31,269 nt of DNA from a virus, in the IMG/VR virus record IMGVR_UViG_3300021960_000318, positions 1 to 31,269 of that record; one strand, written 5' to 3'. Under the pieces are notes generated by a model, which was given only the letters and a program-made list of their open reading frames with translations, ran no database searches and was not told the origin of the DNA. Positions 3 to 11,169 of this stretch are shown in pieces; position 1 is the first letter of the stretch, and every line of letters begins with the position of its first letter. The position numbers were made by a program, and so were the translations under genes.

Positions 3-470
3 AAACAATTAGTTGAATTCATTGGTCAAAGATCATTTGAATTTTTAGATTGGTGTGGATTTGATTTAAGAAATCACAGTTTACATTTTACAGAGTTCTG
101 GGTTCAGGAGTTTGGTAAAAAAGGTGGTGGACATCATGATACTCATGTTCATTGGAATCAACATGTATCAGGATTTTACTTTTTAAAATGTAGTGAAAAA
201 ACTTCTTACCCTGTATTCCATGATCCAAGACCAGGAGCTATGATGACTAAGCTGCCACAAAAAGATGGTGCTAAGATTACTATAGCTAATGAAGCAATTC
301 ATTATAAAATTAATCCAGGAACAATGATAATCTTTCCAGGCTATGTACCACATCAATATGTTGTTGATGCAGGACTAGATCCTTTTAGATTCATTCATTG
401 GAACATTAAAGCTGTTGAGACAGCTATATCTAAAGAAAGGAGCATTAGAGATGAGCTTCCAAAAGAATAA
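3..470 (+). CDS. 2OG-Fe(II) oxygenase, 5'-truncated
   Basis: The frame is open from the left edge to TAA at 468-470 (155 residues visible), so the start lies outside the window. It resembles the putative 2OG-Fe(II) oxygenase family (TIGR02466/PF13759-like): an H-x-H-x-N motif followed by SGFYFL (visible residues 48-60), a distal His in FPGYVPH (residue 117) and an Arg in RFIHWN (residue 129) that could bind 2-oxoglutarate. Such double-stranded beta-helix enzymes hydroxylate or demethylate nucleic acids, proteins or small molecules using Fe(II) and 2-oxoglutarate; the substrate here is unknown. It overlaps the next gene, also an oxygenase, by 20 bases, so the two are probably co-translated. 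An ATG at 240 is internal and would drop the first iron ligands. Confidence 0.85.
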   Translation, partial: KQLVEFIGQRSFEFLDWCGFDLRNHSLHFTEFWVQEFGKKGGGHHDTHVHWNQHVSGFYFLKCSEKTSYPVFHDPRPGAMMTKLPQKDGAKITIANEAIHYKINPGTMIIFPGYVPHQYVVDAGLDPFRFIHWNIKAVETAISKERSIRDELPKE

Positions 471-1104
471 ATACACAATTCTTAAAGGTGCAGTATCACC
501 TGAAGTTGCTAAGTTTGTTACAGAATATTTTTTACTGAAAAGAAAGGTTGCTAGAACTTTATTTGATGAAAGATATATTTCTCAATTCACAACTGAGTTT
601 GGTGTATGGAATGATGAGCAAGTTCCTAATACCTATTCTCATTATGCAGATATAGCTATGGAAACCTTATTACAATGGGTTCAACTAGCTATGGAGAAAC
701 ACACTAAATTAAAACTAATCCCTACTTATTCTTATGCAAGAATATATAAAAAAGGAGATGTTTTACATCGACACAAAGATAGATTTAGTTGTGAAATCTC
801 TACCACCTTAAATCTTGGTGGCGATCATTGGTCAATCTATTTAAGTCCAAAGGAAAATGTTGGTATTCCAAATGATAAAAAAGGAATAACAGCAGCTAGT
901 AATGCTAAAGGTGTTAAAGTAGATTTAAAACCTGGTGATATGCTTATTTACAAAGGCATGGAATTAGAGCATTGGAGAGAACCTTTTGATGGCAAAGATT
1001 GCGTACAAGTTTTTCTACACTATAATAAAACTTCTAAGGAAGCTGAACAAAATCGTTTTGACAGACGACCACATTTAGGACTACCTTCTTGGTTTAAAAA
1101 ATGA
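451..1104 (+). CDS. 2OG-Fe(II) oxygenase
   Basis: A 217-residue cytosolic protein. The start at 451 is preferred over an upstream ATG at 415 because AAAGGAG lies 9 bases before it at 435-441. The core has HRHKD (H108 and D110, the HxD pair of 2OG-Fe(II) dioxygenases), a following STTLNLGGDHW strand, then PGDMLIYKG and distal H174 in LEHWRE. This is the common marine-phage type of 2OG oxygenase. The gene overlaps the preceding oxygenase by 20 bases. The two differ clearly in sequence, so they are not a recent duplication. The target could be a virion protein, a host protein or a nucleic-acid base; the sequence does not say which. Confidence 0.85.
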   Translation: MSFQKNKYTILKGAVSPEVAKFVTEYFLLKRKVARTLFDERYISQFTTEFGVWNDEQVPNTYSHYADIAMETLLQWVQLAMEKHTKLKLIPTYSYARIYKKGDVLHRHKDRFSCEISTTLNLGGDHWSIYLSPKENVGIPNDKKGITAASNAKGVKVDLKPGDMLIYKGMELEHWREPFDGKDCVQVFLHYNKTSKEAEQNRFDRRPHLGLPSWFKK

Positions 1105-5883: not shown

Positions 5884-6252
5884 TTAGTATCTTGATGGTT
5901 TGTTATTACCATAAGAAGCAGACTTTTGGAAAGATTTTTTATATCCACCAAAGTTTGATCCTTTGTTACCACCACCAGACGAACTTTGACCATCGTTAGA
6001 TTTTAACGATATACTTATGCCTCCTGTGGGTTGACCATCGTCTGTGTCTAAGCTCCAACCAGCTTGGTTGAACCATTGCTCACCAATCTTAACACCTTTT
6101 CTCCAAGTTTTACCTTCTGGACTATTAGGGTTTATTGGTGCTTCAAACAAAGGAGTATTATCTCCTTGTTCTCTTTTCATCTTAGTTATATCTAAGATGG
6201 TTTGCTTTAACACAGGATGCGTTGCTACTAACTGTATATTTATGTTAGCCAT
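5884..6252 (-). CDS. Gly/Ser-rich-tail protein, possible ssDNA-binding partner
   Basis: A 122-residue protein. The first 85 residues look like a small beta fold (INIQLVATHPVLK, GKTWRKGVKIGEQWFNQAGWSLD, GGISISLKS); the last 35 are low-complexity Gly/Ser/Asn/Lys (QSSSGGGNKGSNFGGYKK). That plan resembles single-stranded DNA-binding proteins with disordered tails, but the tail is basic rather than acidic and no OB-fold motif can be asserted. It overlaps the ERF annealing gene by 8 bases, and AGGAG precedes the start, so a role alongside the annealase and nuclease is reasonable. Confidence 0.6.
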   Translation of the reverse strand: MANINIQLVATHPVLKQTILDITKMKREQGDNTPLFEAPINPNSPEGKTWRKGVKIGEQWFNQAGWSLDTDDGQPTGGISISLKSNDGQSSSGGGNKGSNFGGYKKSFQKSASYGNNKPSRY

Positions 6253-6913
6253 TTGCTCTCCTATTTAGTTCATCCTGCTTATTTTCTATGAGATCATTTA
6301 GATCTACATATTGAGCAGGACTTTTATTTTTAAGTGCATTGTTTAAGAAAGGTTGGTTTTGTTTTGTAACCTGTCTTAACTCATAAATGTTTTTACAATT
6401 TTTTATTTCATCTATGATTTGATGCACCTCTTTTGTTACATAACTAGCAGTCTTACTGCTATTATGTTCTGTACCACTATTCTTGTGTGGAATTTTATTT
6501 GTTGCAGTATTAGTTTGCGTGAATGGTTTTGCTTGATAACCATCATCATTATCTAATCCTGTTTTTAAATTAAGTGCGTTAAGAAATGCGTATTTTTTTG
6601 CATAACTCATACCATTTCCAGTACCAAACTTATCAAGATTTCCCATTGCCGAACATCCATTAATTTCAATAAATTCATTTGGATTTTCCACATTAAAAAT
6701 TTTCATATTACAAGTTACTAATATGAAATTATCTTTGATCTCGTTTGTGTAGGTACATAAAGGATATAGACCATTATCTAACAATGCTTCCATTGCTACC
6801 TTTTGTACTTCATCGTGTTGTAAGGGATTGAATTGCATTCCGCTAACTTTTTTTCCCTTCTTGACACCACTTGATTGACAAGCAGCTTCGTATAGTTTTT
6901 TGTATATGTTCAT
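6245..6913 (-). CDS. ERF-family single-strand annealing protein
   Basis: The N-terminal ~130 residues match the ERF superfamily: MNIYKKLYEAA, VTCNMKIFNV, then FGTGNGMSYAKKYAFLNALNL (97-117), the segment typical of ERF annealases. A polar C-terminal region follows. ATG 6913 is chosen because it forms an ATGA overlap with the nuclease stop; ATG 6928, five codons upstream, is also possible. ERF proteins anneal complementary single strands in phage recombination and genome circularisation or concatemer formation. The nuclease immediately upstream would supply the single strands. Confidence 0.85.
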   Translation of the reverse strand: MNIYKKLYEAACQSSGVKKGKKVSGMQFNPLQHDEVQKVAMEALLDNGLYPLCTYTNEIKDNFILVTCNMKIFNVENPNEFIEINGCSAMGNLDKFGTGNGMSYAKKYAFLNALNLKTGLDNDDGYQAKPFTQTNTATNKIPHKNSGTEHNSSKTASYVTKEVHQIIDEIKNCKNIYELRQVTKQNQPFLNNALKNKSPAQYVDLNDLIENKQDELNRRANG

Positions 6914-7872
6914 GGGTTTAGTTTCCATAGTTTTTGTATTGTTTCCTTTTGTTTATTTGTCATATATTTATAATGGTAATAATGATTAAGGTCAGGTGGT
7001 TCAGTTAGTTCAGCTAACTTGTATAGATCACCTTTGCAATAGATAACCATTTGTTCCCAGTTATAAATTTTGTTTATCATCATATTATATTGATAGTCTA
7101 AATGATCTGCACGAAGAGCATCGTGAGTATCATCATAAATTAAATAATCATTTTCATTTACTAAAACCAAGAAAGGTTTTTTGCCTGTGCATTTCCAATA
7201 GAAAGCTACTTGTTTCCAGTAATCATCGAAGATAGAATCGTCATTTAGTTCTTGGGTTTTAAAATAGTATTCATCTTTATTTTTTCTTTTATAAACTGAA
7301 GGTGGTTTAGTTTTTAATTCTATAAATAATTTTTTATTATTACTATCTGTTTCATAATCAATCCTACCTATAATATCGAACAATAATTTTTTTGGTTTAT
7401 CCATTACATATCTTTCCGATATGATTTTTTCTTTACCGCAAATTTCTCTAATAACTTTTCTTGTTTGTGCTATTGTTTGATGAGCATAATCAATCATATA
7501 TTTTCTTGCGTAAGCATCCTTGTCATCAACAGGATCATACTTATTAATATCATCTAACTCTTTGCCAAACACCTCATCATAATTTCTGTTAGTTAATATG
7601 ATGGTTTTATTTTTAAAGAACAAAGTATCACATTCCATTCTTTGAGCTGTGTTATTAACTAAGTTTCCAAACCTAGGTTTATATTGCATAAGAAATTCAT
7701 TACGATCTTTTGAATTGTGAAACCCATAATTAATTATGACTTTAGATAAAGGTTGATTAGCTGAAGATGGCGACCAATGATCTAAGCCTTCTCCATTATT
7801 AAAATTTTTAAATAATTCTTTTAAATTATACTGTTCTTGTAGTTGCATTGTTGTTTTGTGTTCTTCTAACAA
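6910..7872 (-). CDS. PD-(D/E)XK (RecB/Cas4-like) exonuclease
   Basis: A 320-residue protein with the PD-(D/E)XK core in order: D172 in IIGRIDYET, E185-x-K187 in LFIELKTK, and the QxxxY element QVAFYWK (221-227) typical of RecB/lambda-exonuclease-type nucleases. The N-terminal SPSSAN segment is also common in these proteins. It is first in the leftward cluster and coupled by ATGA to the ERF annealase, giving the usual phage two-component recombination pair. There is no helicase domain. Starts at 7872 or at the in-frame ATG 7848 are both possible. Confidence 0.82.
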   Translation of the reverse strand: MLEEHKTTMQLQEQYNLKELFKNFNNGEGLDHWSPSSANQPLSKVIINYGFHNSKDRNEFLMQYKPRFGNLVNNTAQRMECDTLFFKNKTIILTNRNYDEVFGKELDDINKYDPVDDKDAYARKYMIDYAHQTIAQTRKVIREICGKEKIISERYVMDKPKKLLFDIIGRIDYETDSNNKKLFIELKTKPPSVYKRKNKDEYYFKTQELNDDSIFDDYWKQVAFYWKCTGKKPFLVLVNENDYLIYDDTHDALRADHLDYQYNMMINKIYNWEQMVIYCKGDLYKLAELTEPPDLNHYYHYKYMTNKQKETIQKLWKLNP

Positions 7873-8416: not shown

Positions 8417-8565
8417 CAGACATAGATATGTTTGCTGACTACAAAGGTAAGATTAAGAAACTAAAAAAAATAATTGAAGATCAAAGAAAAGAAATTGATA
8501 CCTTGAAACAAATCATACAATTTCAGGAGCTACAATTAGAACAAAAAGAGGATAGAGATGAGTAA
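8413..8565 (+). CDS. Small coiled-coil protein (50 aa)
   Basis: ATG 8413 overlaps the previous stop (ATGA); the frame ends TAA 8563-8565, overlapping the methyltransferase start by 8 bases. The product is one long charged helix (YKGKIKKLKKIIEDQRKEI, LKQIIQFQELQLEQKE) with Leu/Ile at heptad positions, so probably a dimeric coiled coil. Tiny helical proteins of this kind are common immediately before phage methyltransferase genes. No family name assigned. Confidence 0.6.
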   Translation: MTDIDMFADYKGKIKKLKKIIEDQRKEIDTLKQIIQFQELQLEQKEDRDE

Positions 8566-9703
8566 GTTAAAATTACTAGATCTATTTAGTGGTATAGGTG
8601 GGTTTAGTTTAGGGTTAGAAAGTACCGGTGGATTTGAAACCATTGCTTTCGTAGAAAAGGATAAGTTTTGTCAAAAAGTATTAGCTAAAAATTTTAATAA
8701 AATAACAATCGAAGGAGAAATAAGAAATGTCAAAGGAGAAAAATACAAAGCAGACATCATCACAGCTGGTTTCCCCTGCCAACCATTTAGTGTCGCAGGA
8801 AAAAGAAAAGGAAAGGATGACGACAGATACTTGTGGGACGAAACCATTAGAGTTATTAGAGAATGTAAACCTAAGTGGTTCGTTGGCGAAAATGTGGAAG
8901 GCATTGTTAACATCGCAAATGGTACAGTCTTGCAGCAGATACAACAAGACCTGGAAAAAGAGGGTTTCGAAGTCCAATGTGGTATTATTCCAGCTTCAGG
9001 CATCGGTGCGTGGCATCAAAGAAAAAGAGTTTGGATCATCGGATATAACTTATCCAACGCCAACAACAATGTTTCCAACTCCAGTGACAGGCGACAGTTC
9101 AACGGAAAATATAGAAACTTGGAAACTAAGACAGAAAAAGAAAAAAGAACAAGGTATCAACCTACATTTCAAACTTTGTCATCATATTCAGATGTACCCA
9201 ACACCAACTCAGGGAATGTGGAAGCAAGATGTGAACGACAACGGAGAATACGCCAAGAGAGTGAAGGAGAAAGGTCATCAAGTAATGCTACCAACATTTG
9301 TGAAACTTTATCCAACACCAACAGCATCAGACTCCGAGGGTGGAGTAGCAAAGGATGTGCAAATGAAGGATGGTCATTTCTTCCGAAAGAACAAGAAGGG
9401 AGAGAGATGGGGAGTGAAACTTCGAGACGCAATATCCATACTTCCAACTCCGACAGCGAGGGATTACAAGGATGCAGCTTACCAACCGAATTGGAAAGAG
9501 AGCAGAGACAAGTCATTACCAAGAGAGATACTGAAAGACAACAAACCTGGTGGGAGGCTCAATCCGATATTTGTAGAAATGTTAATGGCATATCCTATGA
9601 ATTGGACAAAGATAGAACCAACAGAATAAAGGCTTTAGGTAATTCAATAGTACCTTTGATAGCTAGAGAGATAGGACTTGCGATCTTAGAGGCAGAAAAG
9701 TGA
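8558..9703 (+). CDS. DNA (cytosine-5) methyltransferase
   Basis: A 381-residue C5 MTase. Motif I is LLDLFSGIGGFSLGL (6-20); motif IV GFPCQPFSVAG (71-81) contains the nucleophile C74; motif VI is ENVEG (111-115); motif VIII is QRKRVW (154-159); motif X is RIKALGNSIVP (356-366). It would transfer methyl from S-adenosylmethionine to cytosine, shielding phage DNA from host nucleases or altering regulation. The region between motifs VIII and X (about 165-350, the target-recognition part) is Ser/Asn/Arg-rich and low-complexity, with repeated S-N-x-N-S segments. The same DNA is open in another frame with its own MTase-like motifs (8727-9629). AGAGG lies just before the start, which overlaps the upstream gene. 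Confidence 0.88.
   Translation: MSKLKLLDLFSGIGGFSLGLESTGGFETIAFVEKDKFCQKVLAKNFNKITIEGEIRNVKGEKYKADIITAGFPCQPFSVAGKRKGKDDDRYLWDETIRVIRECKPKWFVGENVEGIVNIANGTVLQQIQQDLEKEGFEVQCGIIPASGIGAWHQRKRVWIIGYNLSNANNNVSNSSDRRQFNGKYRNLETKTEKEKRTRYQPTFQTLSSYSDVPNTNSGNVEARCERQRRIRQESEGERSSSNATNICETLSNTNSIRLRGWSSKGCANEGWSFLPKEQEGREMGSETSRRNIHTSNSDSEGLQGCSLPTELEREQRQVITKRDTERQQTWWEAQSDICRNVNGISYELDKDRTNRIKALGNSIVPLIAREIGLAILEAEK
8727..9629 (+). CDS. Alternative-frame ORF inside the methyltransferase gene with MTase C-terminal motifs
   Basis: A 300-residue frame (+1 relative to the MTase) starting ATG 8727, with AAGGAG nine bases upstream (8712-8717). Residues 1-105 look like noise, but from about 109 it carries repeated PTP motifs (110, 117, 158, 196, 240), including YPTPTASDSEGG and LPTPTARDYKDA, and ends GGRLNPIFVEMLMAYPMNWT (275-294). 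Those are hallmarks of the C-terminal part of many phage C5 MTases. The frame stops just before motif X, which is in the main frame. It may be a relic of a frameshifted TRD, a real overlapping gene, or the product of programmed frameshifting. Confidence 0.4.
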   Translation: MSKEKNTKQTSSQLVSPANHLVSQEKEKERMTTDTCGTKPLELLENVNLSGSLAKMWKALLTSQMVQSCSRYNKTWKKRVSKSNVVLFQLQASVRGIKEKEFGSSDITYPTPTTMFPTPVTGDSSTENIETWKLRQKKKKEQGINLHFKLCHHIQMYPTPTQGMWKQDVNDNGEYAKRVKEKGHQVMLPTFVKLYPTPTASDSEGGVAKDVQMKDGHFFRKNKKGERWGVKLRDAISILPTPTARDYKDAAYQPNWKESRDKSLPREILKDNKPGGRLNPIFVEMLMAYPMNWTKIEPTE

Positions 9704-10095
9704 TGGCACGTTATACCTACGCATTTTCCAATGGTGTCTATAATGATTGGCATAGAAAATATGATGGCATAGCTATGATAGATGTTGATAGCATTGAGGT
9801 TTGTCCTAAATGTTTTGAACCTTTGGCAATCCTTGAGACTTGTTATGATAAAGGACAAAAATACAAGGCTACAACCCTTGTTTCTACCCTTGCTAGTCGC
9901 CTTCAGATACCTAGTTTTTTAGTTTTCTATAAAGATATAGGTCAAGGTAGCCTAGCCTTTAGGATCAAACGTCTCTGGCTTTCTAATGCAGAGTATGAGG
10001 TAATGACAGAGGATGAATGGGTTAATATCTTATATGAGATACAAGAGGAACATAAAAACTGTTGCATAAATGTCACAACCACAACATATAGTTAA
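9703..10095 (+). CDS. Conserved hypothetical phage protein with CxxC
   Basis: ATG 9703 overlaps the MTase stop as TGATG; GTG 9700 is in frame. The 130-residue product has RYTYAFSNGVYNDWHR, AMIDVDSIEVCPKCFEPLAILE with C34 and C37, then TTLVSTLASRLQIPSFLVFYK. D27, E45 and the following strand could form a PD-(D/E)XK-like or VRR-type core, but I cannot confirm it. I recognise the arrangement as a recurrent phage protein without assigned function. Its stop abuts the next start (ATGG overlap at 10095). Confidence 0.6.
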   Translation: MARYTYAFSNGVYNDWHRKYDGIAMIDVDSIEVCPKCFEPLAILETCYDKGQKYKATTLVSTLASRLQIPSFLVFYKDIGQGSLAFRIKRLWLSNAEYEVMTEDEWVNILYEIQEEHKNCCINVTTTTYS

Positions 10096-10823
10096 TGGAT
10101 AAAAAATACACACCACATATACGAATACCTTTTAGCTTATTTGATAGTGCAGAATATAAACAAATTCCTGACACATATAAATCTAATTGTCTTTCGCTTT
10201 TAATGTGTTTATTAAAGTTTGTTAATAATAAAACTGGTAAATGTTATCCTAGACAATCTACTATATCTAGTATGATTGGGTTATCAAGAACCACTATATA
10301 CAGAGCTACATTACAGTTAAAAAAAGCAAAGATTATACAGATTAAAAGGTTATCTTCAACCCTATTATATAAAATAGAACCTAAGTTTATTTATGGTTAT
10401 GTTTCAAATTTAAACAATGATGTTTCAAAATTAAACAATGATGTTTCAAATTTAAAGATATTAATAAAACATAACACTTTATCCAACACTATATCCAACA
10501 CTAAAATAACTAATATTATAAAAAGGATTAGCGAAGATGGCGGTAGTAAAGACAAGATAATTCAAGAAATAGCCACTCTACCCGCTGCCGAGCTTGAAAA
10601 GGCTATTGAAAATAATGACAACCCTTATTTTTGTAGATTGGCACTCGAAATCAAATCAAGAGAGGGTAATAAGCTGGTCGAGTTTAATAGTAAGGAAATA
10701 TCGGAAAGGATAAGAAAGAAAACAAACTTTGCTTACCAAAGAGCAATAGAGAAAAGGAAAAGAGACGATGGCAGGGAGACCGCAACAAAAAATTTTTTGT
10801 CAAGCATTAAGAAGAAGAGATAA
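10095..10823 (+). CDS. HTH replication-initiator-like protein
   Basis: A 242-residue protein. Residues 8-100 form a winged-helix domain of the kind found in phage replisome organisers and plasmid initiators (HTH_36-like): IPFSLFDSAEYKQI, then CYPRQSTISSMIGLSRTTIYRA (recognition helix about 62-75) and a wing. Residues 103-130 are repetitive (SNLNNDVSKLNNDVSNL) and encoded by direct DNA repeats, followed by a polar linker and a basic C-terminal tail (ERIRKKTNF, EKRKRDDGR). Initiator genes with origin repeats inside them are known from lambdoid phages (gene O), so this may be origin and initiator together. Confidence 0.6.
   Translation: MDKKYTPHIRIPFSLFDSAEYKQIPDTYKSNCLSLLMCLLKFVNNKTGKCYPRQSTISSMIGLSRTTIYRATLQLKKAKIIQIKRLSSTLLYKIEPKFIYGYVSNLNNDVSKLNNDVSNLKILIKHNTLSNTISNTKITNIIKRISEDGGSKDKIIQEIATLPAAELEKAIENNDNPYFCRLALEIKSREGNKLVEFNSKEISERIRKKTNFAYQRAIEKRKRDDGRETATKNFLSSIKKKR
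10401..10503 (+). repeat. Iteron-like tandem repeats inside the initiator-like gene
   Basis: A 21-bp unit beginning GTTTCAAATTTAAACAATGA starts at 10401, 10422 (one substitution) and 10443 (partial, about 14-17 bp). Forty bases later the 12-mer TATCCAACACTA is repeated exactly twice, at 10480-10491 and 10492-10503. The flanking DNA is very A+T-rich. The 21-bp period keeps frame and gives the protein repeat NLNNDVS/KLNNDVS. Confidence 0.8.
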
Positions 10824-11169
10824 CAAACCTTGCCAAGCTAAAGGCTTCATGTGTGCAAATGGAAAACATCTTTGTAGATTTCATGGATATAATAATATAC
10901 TAGGATTTAATAAACCTAATTATTCAGATGACACAAGAATTAACCAGCTCTCAAAACTTAAACAATTCAGAGACAAAACAAGAGAGCAGCTCAGAGATTA
11001 CTACTTCAAAATACTTAAGCCAAGACTTACAAGCAATCAAAAGTCTATCTACCATAGAAGAGCATTTAATAGCAGGAAGAACACTAACCGAGTGTATATC
11101 GGACAAAACAATAAACCCCTCACAGATCAGCTTGATGCGGTTTTACAACATCTTAAAAAGAAATCCTGA
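10768..11169 (+). CDS. Small zinc-motif protein
   Basis: A 133-residue basic protein. C11, C22, C36 and H39 (IFCQALRR, KPCQAKG, HLCRFHG) match the Cys/His N-terminal motif of a phage protein family that usually continues HGGxSTGPKT; here it reads HGYNNILGFNKP. The C-terminal part is Lys/Arg-rich (KLKQFRDKTREQLRDYYFK, YHRRAFNSRKNTNR). It overlaps the initiator-like gene by 56 bases and the small-terminase-like gene by 242 bases, each in another frame. Unknown function; DNA or RNA binding is likely. Confidence 0.6.
   Translation: MAGRPQQKIFCQALRRRDNKPCQAKGFMCANGKHLCRFHGYNNILGFNKPNYSDDTRINQLSKLKQFRDKTREQLRDYYFKILKPRLTSNQKSIYHRRAFNSRKNTNRVYIGQNNKPLTDQLDAVLQHLKKKS

What the first reader, a model, noticed from the sequence alone, without database searches (positions are those of the whole stretch)
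8727..9629. Methyltransferase gene open in two frames, both with MTase C-terminal signatures
The main frame has motifs I-VIII and X and ends in the usual way. Yet from about 9050 to 9629 the +1 frame carries five PTP motifs (including PTPTASD and PTPTARD) and GGRLNPIFVEMLMAYPMNWT, hallmarks I know from the C-termini of other phage C5 MTases. In the main frame the same DNA reads S-N-x-N-S repeats and WWEAQSDICRNVNGISYELD, which also resembles known MTases. Two MTase C-terminal classes may thus be frameshifted versions of the same DNA. The alternative frame also has its own ATG with AAGGAG nine bases upstream. Options: an overlapping gene, programmed frameshift giving two target-recognition regions, or an ancestral frameshift that founded a new TRD class.
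Basis: partly seen in the sequence, partly recalled or inferred. Interest (0 to 1): 0.85.

Follow-up and report, generated by a model that had tools for sequence, protein, structure and literature searches.

The report
Methyltransferase split across two overlapping frames
One stretch of phage DNA appears to encode the two halves of a DNA-methylating enzyme in two different reading frames at once, and the half that should choose the DNA target is a string of interchangeable modules that phages swap, probably to dodge many bacterial restriction systems with one enzyme.

Summary
The double-open gene is real. Frame 0 (8558-9703, 381 aa, 'alpha') carries C5-methyltransferase motifs I-VIII and X. 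The nested +1 ORF (8727-9629, 300 aa, 'beta') carries the target-recognition region (PTP cassettes) and motif IX.

Both frames stay open in all 76 distinct loci analysed. Given the beta protein, 570 frame-0 stops would be expected; none occur. Between motifs VIII and X, substitutions fall mainly at beta's third codon position (34 of 35 pairs). Elsewhere they fall at alpha's third position (36 of 36). So the two frames divide the work: beta is the selected frame for target recognition and IX, and alpha's 180 residues there are an unselected bridge. AlphaFold folds alpha 1-170 and 355-381 and leaves 173-346 disordered. Beta has a conserved start and Shine-Dalgarno site.

The best explanation is a two-polypeptide enzyme like M.EcoHK31I, not a frameshift and not two competing C-termini. 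Two features go beyond the textbook case as I know it. The arrangement is widespread in phages and bacteria. And beta's recognition region is a combinatorial array of 2-7 recombining cassettes (45 families, 58 architectures in 76 loci), like multispecific Bacillus-phage enzymes. No activity was tested.

The parts
8558..9703 (+). alpha gene, frame 0, 381 aa: C5-MTase motifs I-VIII, bridge, motif X
   Evidence: PF00145 2.8e-59; TIGR00675 1.2e-50
8558..9043 (+). alpha catalytic part, motifs I-VIII (residues 1-162)
   Evidence: PDB sequence hits to HhaI/HaeIII end at residues 164-165; AF2 high confidence over 1-170, Foldseek to HhaI 4.7e-17; frame-0 codon-phase selection
9044..9613 (+). alpha bridge: frame-0 reading of beta's recognition region, kept open but not the selected frame
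   Evidence: substitutions concentrate at frame-0 pos1; no stops, 8.9 expected in window; AF2 pLDDT below 50 over 173-225 and 235-346
9614..9700 (+). alpha motif X (RTNRIKALGNSIVP...), C-terminal helix
   Evidence: frame-0 pos3 variation resumes; invariant R,K,LGN,P; AF2 pLDDT 76-94
8712..8717 (+). Shine-Dalgarno AAGGAG of beta, inside alpha codons
   Evidence: SD-like before the first +1 ATG in 62 of 76 loci vs 30 of 274 control ATGs; synonymous-conservation peak 0.40
8721..8723 (+). +1-frame stop (TAA) just before the beta start
   Evidence: ATG two codons after the +1 stop in 47 of 76 loci
8727..9629 (+). beta gene, +1 frame, 300 aa
   Evidence: PHROG 1008 1.4e-27; tblastn; open in all parsed loci; start codon kept in 59 of 59 loci with R[ND]V
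8727..9053 (+). beta N-terminal part, overlaps motifs IV-VIII; constrained especially from about residue 52
   Evidence: +1 stops 2 observed vs 111 expected in 76 loci; synonymous conservation excess 0.33-0.50
9054..9074 (+). truncated first PTP unit (PTPTTMF)
9075..9191 (+). beta cassette, family M10
9198..9305 (+). beta cassette, family M5 (17 loci, found at positions 1-4)
   Evidence: 82% nt identity to L038 whose catalytic part is 63% identical
9312..9437 (+). beta cassette, family M3 (21 loci)
9444..9548 (+). beta cassette, family M1 (always last)
9549..9608 (+). motif IX (GGRLNPIFVEMLMAYPMNWT) in the +1 frame
   Evidence: strongest +1-frame selection (0.197/0.067/0.054); joined to motif X its only PDB hits are a C5 methyltransferase at IX-X

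Best explanation
This is one C5-cytosine DNA methyltransferase made of two polypeptides encoded in two frames of the same DNA. Alpha (frame 0) supplies the SAM-binding and catalytic motifs I-VIII and the closing motif X. Between them it crosses about 180 residues of unselected, probably unstructured bridge. Beta (+1 frame, started separately at ATG 8727) supplies the target-recognition cassettes and motif IX. The two chains would associate to rebuild a normal C5-MTase, with beta forming the small DNA-reading domain and choosing the sites. Beta carries a row of interchangeable PTP cassettes, each probably reading one sequence, so the phage would methylate several motifs and escape several restriction systems. 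Shown by computation: the motif partition, the selected frame per region, the conserved beta start, and cassette shuffling. Inferred: association of the chains, activity, one specificity per cassette, and the anti-restriction role.
For: Selected frame switches at VIII/recognition region and back at X: diff rates at frame-0 pos1/2/3 are I-III .131/.084/.316, recognition region .332/.190/.191, IX .197/.067/.054, X .171/.124/.384. Sign counts are 34 of 35 and 36 of 36 pairs; 55 of 55 for pairs that include the window. Replicated in new viral loci, 17 of 18. Both frames open far beyond chance. Conserved beta ATG and SD. Alpha model has two folded parts and a disordered bridge, like HhaI over I-VIII. 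Beta motif IX joined to alpha motif X finds only C5-MTases 4onq/4onj, aligned at IX-X (E 0.16); the frame-0 version finds nothing. In mycobacteriophage Rita and relatives the beta-like region lies in one frame with the catalytic part, as a single-chain enzyme. M.EcoHK31I is a biochemical precedent for I-VIII+X in one chain and IX in another (PMC3404938). Cassette arrays.
Against: No expression, complex formation or methylation was tested. The beta model alone was unconfident (pLDDT 51), and beta has no sequence hit in PDB. The motif IX match has only E = 0.16. The loci share ancestry, so counts are not independent. Beta's N-terminal 100 residues are constrained without a known role. For M.EcoHK31I the literature places the predicted recognition domain in the larger subunit, whereas here it is in beta.
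Confidence: 0.82

Rival explanations
1. Programmed frameshifting: ribosomes shift +1 after motif VIII and back before motif X, giving one full-length chain with the beta recognition region.
For: Single-chain relatives with this region in frame exist (Rita). The product would have all ten motifs.
Against: Two precise shifts would be needed. Beta has its own conserved start and SD. Frame 0 is kept open across the bridge in all loci (0 vs 570 stops), which a shift would not require. Synonymous conservation is low near the switch (0.15 at codons +81..+89 vs 0.40 at the beta start).
Confidence: 0.07
2. Only frame 0 matters: it is an ordinary methyltransferase with a divergent recognition domain, and the +1 frame is open by codon bias.
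For: Pfam/NCBIfam match alpha end to end, and annotators often list only this gene.
Against: In the recognition region and IX, frame-0 pos1 varies most, the opposite of frame-0 coding. Shuffling frame-0 codons rarely leaves +1 open. AF2 leaves the region disordered.
Confidence: 0.04
3. Beta is a separate protein with another role (for example a regulator, nuclease or anti-restriction factor) that happens to overlap the gene.
For: Beta has its own start and a constrained N-terminal part, and no activity of the pair is known here.
Against: Alpha lacks a selected recognition region and motif IX. Beta holds a motif IX at the right distance from X (27 codons in most loci), and the same region is fused in frame in Rita-type enzymes.
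Confidence: 0.07

Closest known systems
M.EcoHK31I (YGGCCR), two-polypeptide C5-MTase (and M.EaeI, from memory)
   Same: Large chain has motifs I-VIII and X, small chain has motif IX (PMC3404938). From memory, the small chain is read from another frame inside the large gene.
   Different: There the predicted recognition domain is assigned to the large chain; here selection places it in the small chain, as a cassette array. Here it is on a phage and recurs in many phages and bacterial phyla.
Multispecific C5-MTases of Bacillus phages (SPR, phi3T, rho11, H2)
   Same: Several recognition domains in a row, used by phages against several restriction systems (PMC12707154; Wilke 1988 and Trautner 1996 as cited).
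   Different: Those are single chains in one frame. Here the array lies in a separate overlapping gene and is far more combinatorial.
M.AquI, two-polypeptide C5-MTase
   Same: Split C5-MTase with two chains (PMC3404938).
   Different: AquI's small chain carries IX and X; here X is in the large chain.
PHROG 1008 'DNA methyltransferase' and the doubled annotations in Paenibacillus larvae phages
   Same: The same beta frame, already in databases as a methyltransferase.
   Different: Listed without recognition that it is the +1 half of the overlapping methyltransferase gene.

Membership tests
C5-MTase (PF00145) | motifs I-VIII in order with catalytic PCQ | tested here: met
   (2.8e-59), invariant PCQ, ENV, Foldseek HhaI 4.7e-17
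C5-MTase (PF00145) | recognition domain, motif IX and motif X in the same chain | tested here: not met
   X is in frame 0; recognition region and IX are selected in the +1 frame
M.EcoHK31I-type split MTase | large chain with I-VIII and X, small chain with IX | tested here: met
   definition from PMC3404938
M.EcoHK31I-type split MTase | small chain coded in another frame inside the large gene | tested here: met
   8727-9629 is +1 inside 8558-9703; that EcoHK31I has this layout is from memory
M.EcoHK31I-type split MTase | recognition domain in the large chain (as stated in PMC3404938) | tested here: not met
   recognition region is selected in beta's frame
M.EcoHK31I-type split MTase | both chains needed for methylation | not testable with these tools
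   needs an enzyme assay
Multispecific phage C5-MTase | tandem recognition domains between VIII and IX | tested here: met
   2-7 cassettes of median 37 aa, 45 families; that they are recognition domains is inferred from position
Multispecific phage C5-MTase | single polypeptide | tested here: not met
   two frames
Multispecific phage C5-MTase | methylates several motifs | not testable with these tools
   needs a methylome
M.AquI-type split MTase | small chain carries IX and X | tested here: not met
   beta stops 3 codons before X in most loci

The most novel reading that the evidence does not exclude
A widespread class of DNA methyltransferases in phages and bacteria is encoded as two obligatory partners in two frames of one gene. 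Its specificity subunit is a combinatorial array of dual-frame-open recognition cassettes that recombine between phages, each adding one methylated motif.
Probability: 0.55. Interest if true: 0.88.

Novelty: new variant of a known kind. Interest (0 to 1): 0.77.

Why it matters
If correct, many genes annotated as single or doubled cytosine methyltransferases are half-enzymes, and predicting specificity from the frame-0 'recognition domain' reads the wrong frame. It is a large, conserved case of division of labour between overlapping genes, in which each frame is selected only over part of the overlap. The cassette arrays would be a natural parts list for reading and reprogramming 5mC specificity, and a testable picture of how phages keep up with diverse restriction systems.

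Tried and rejected
Folding beta's recognition region alone gave a poor model, not used further. A first mixed alignment of alpha and beta fragments misaligned them and was dropped. Pfam and PDB profile searches of beta gave nothing. Coding potential inside the window alone was ambiguous between frames over the overlap, so comparative evidence was used. The first cassette splitting cut inside 'GGTP' and was redone. Literature searches found no description of this arrangement in phages; the original EcoHK31I paper is not held. GeneTack frame-transition work does not discuss DNA cytosine methylases in its main text. An assembly error was rejected because of recurrence in isolates.

Full report
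The finding is real, and larger than it looked. Frame 0 of 8558-9703 encodes a 381-aa C5 cytosine methyltransferase ('alpha'), and the +1 frame of 8727-9629 encodes a 300-aa ORF nested inside it ('beta'). Alpha matches PF00145 at 2.8e-59. Beta matches no Pfam family, but it matches PHROG 1008 'DNA methyltransferase' over nearly its whole length at 1.4e-27, and tblastn finds it in 73 phage records. In Paenibacillus larvae phages the same DNA is annotated as two overlapping cytosine methyltransferases. The window is a 32.6% GC fragment of a T7-like podovirus.

Both frames are maintained. I fetched 120 viral loci with the beta and alpha queries plus annotated phages. Of 122 loci in which a catalytic ORF was parsed, 115 have the motif 'LNPxFVExLM' in the +1 frame, shortly upstream of motif X in frame 0. 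Two mycobacteriophage loci have it in frame 0, and the rest were truncated or did not fit the pattern. Many loci are the same contig fetched twice; 76 distinct sequences were used for statistics. Shuffling synonymous codons shows how unlikely the double openness is. Given the beta protein, 570 frame-0 stops are expected over the recognition region and IX, and 0 are seen. Given alpha, 235 +1 stops are expected there and 0 are seen; over motifs IV-VIII, 111 are expected and 2 are seen. For the window alone the expectations are 8.9, 4.2 and 1.1 against 0. The loci are related, so these totals are not independent trials.

The two frames divide the labour. In 35 disjoint pairs, difference rates at frame-0 codon positions 1/2/3 are .131/.084/.316 over motifs I-III.115/.055/.207 over IV-VIII.332/.190/.191 over the recognition region.197/.067/.054 over motif IX, and .171/.124/.384 over motif X. 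The free position switches from frame-0 pos3 to frame-0 pos1, which is beta's third position, exactly over the recognition region and IX. It switches back at X. By pair, pos1 exceeds pos3 in 34 of 35 in that stretch, and pos3 exceeds pos1 in 36 of 36 elsewhere; pairs that include the window give 55 of 55 and 56 of 56. New viral loci fetched by beta alone repeat it (17 of 18), as do three pairs of cellular loci. So alpha is selected for I-VIII and X, and beta for the recognition region and IX. Alpha's residues in between are an open bridge whose sequence follows from beta's.

Structure agrees. AlphaFold2 of alpha with 58 sequences is confident for residues 1-170, mostly confident for 355-381 (motif X), and below pLDDT 50 for nearly all of 173-346. 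Foldseek matches HhaI over about 168 aligned columns (4.7e-17), and sequence hits to HhaI end at residue 164. To test motif IX, I joined beta's IX to alpha's X at natural spacing and searched the PDB. The only two hits were one DNA methyltransferase (4onq/4onj; a plant DRM enzyme, from memory), aligned exactly across IX-X, at E = 0.16. The frame-0 reading of the same stretch joined to X found nothing. That E-value is weak taken alone; its weight comes from the hit being a C5 methyltransferase at the right place. In mycobacteriophage Rita and relatives the beta-like region lies in frame inside one chain, so alpha plus beta correspond to one complete enzyme.

Beta has its own translation start. 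The first +1 ATG lies at the same codon in 59 of 76 loci, two codons after a +1 stop in 47. An SD-like sequence precedes the first ATG in 62 of 76 loci, against 30 of 274 control ATGs in the same region. In 59 loci with R[ND]V in alpha at that place, the N/D codon ends in T every time, which creates the ATG; elsewhere 70% do. Synonymous conservation peaks there (excess 0.40 against about 0.10 upstream), is high over beta's N-terminal part (0.33-0.50), and is low at the motif VIII switch (0.15), where a frameshift signal would be expected (that profile uses 58 loci chosen for having the ATG). This is why I prefer separate initiation to programmed frameshifting.

The surprise is the cassette array. 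Beta's recognition region splits at PTP into units of median 37 aa. In 76 loci there are 282 units in 45 families (55% identity), 2-7 per locus, in 58 different orders. Many families occur at several positions; family M1 is always last. Units recombine: the window's M5 is 82% identical in DNA to that of L038, whose catalytic part is only 63% identical to the window's. In 137 shared-unit pairs the unit is more alike than the catalytic part by over 10 points; the reverse is commoner (711), as expected for a faster-evolving region. The window carries a stub plus M10-M5-M3-M1. By position between motifs VIII and IX these are target-recognition domains. Bacillus temperate phages are known to array several such domains in one chain to escape many restriction systems (PMC12707154). 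One specificity per cassette is inference.

It is not confined to this phage. A scan of bacterial and archaeal genomes with the beta profile gave 80 loci from Clostridia, Paenibacillus, Bacteroidetes, Alphaproteobacteria, Pseudomonas, Actinoplanes and others. Of the 70 with a recognisable catalytic motif, 69 have motif IX in the +1 frame, 68 of them with the catalytic ORF running past IX; one is in the +2 frame. In two phylum samples PHROG 1008 is found in 4 of 299 and 17 of 299 genomes, each count including the genome used as centre, so it is scattered, as expected of prophages and mobile systems.

Comparison with the known. The motif partition (I-VIII and X in one chain, IX in the other) is that of M.EcoHK31I (PMC3404938). 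From memory, its small subunit is also read from another frame within the large gene; I could not open the original paper. It differs in that the recognition domain is here in beta and is a combinatorial array. M.AquI differs because its small chain also has X. I therefore file it as a new variant of a known kind. I found no paper describing the arrangement in phages, but the library lacks most subscription journals and REBASE was not searched.

Limits: no biochemistry; the beta structure is unsolved by prediction; the role of beta's first 100 residues is unknown; the resemblance of motif IX to that of HhaI and the EcoHK31I frame layout rest partly on memory.

Noticed in passing
window 415-1104: Ferrochelatase-like auxiliary metabolic gene (PHROG 2954, 1.6e-49) in a T7-like phage.
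   Followed up: no
L012, L071, L073, L074, L084, L089, L093, L098, L100, L119: In about ten loci beta has no stop before motif X and runs to roughly 376-427 aa, past alpha's region into a downstream segment that in L012 and L084 contains another 'YRTPTAMD' unit and an unrelated-looking tail.
   Followed up: partly
L006 793-1962 and L005 808-1962 (mycobacteriophages Rita and prophiGD91-2): Single-chain relatives; in L006 the first two PTP units are still in the +1 frame while later ones are in frame 0, as if a frame change happened inside the array.
   Followed up: partly
L218; L002: The alpha gene appears broken by a frame change near its 5' half while beta is intact; a sequencing error is possible.
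   Followed up: no
L007 1501-2531 (Sulfitobacter phage phiGT1): A minimal version: alpha of 245 aa with a +1 ORF carrying one PTP unit and an MGFPPGW motif.
   Followed up: no
window 6245-6928 (-): Erf-like single-strand annealing protein (PHROG 155, 2.9e-17), which might help cassette recombination; speculation.
   Followed up: no
window 10095-10823 and 10768-11169: Two further overlapping ORFs in different frames: a DnaD/replication-initiation-like ORF and a 133-aa unknown.
   Followed up: no
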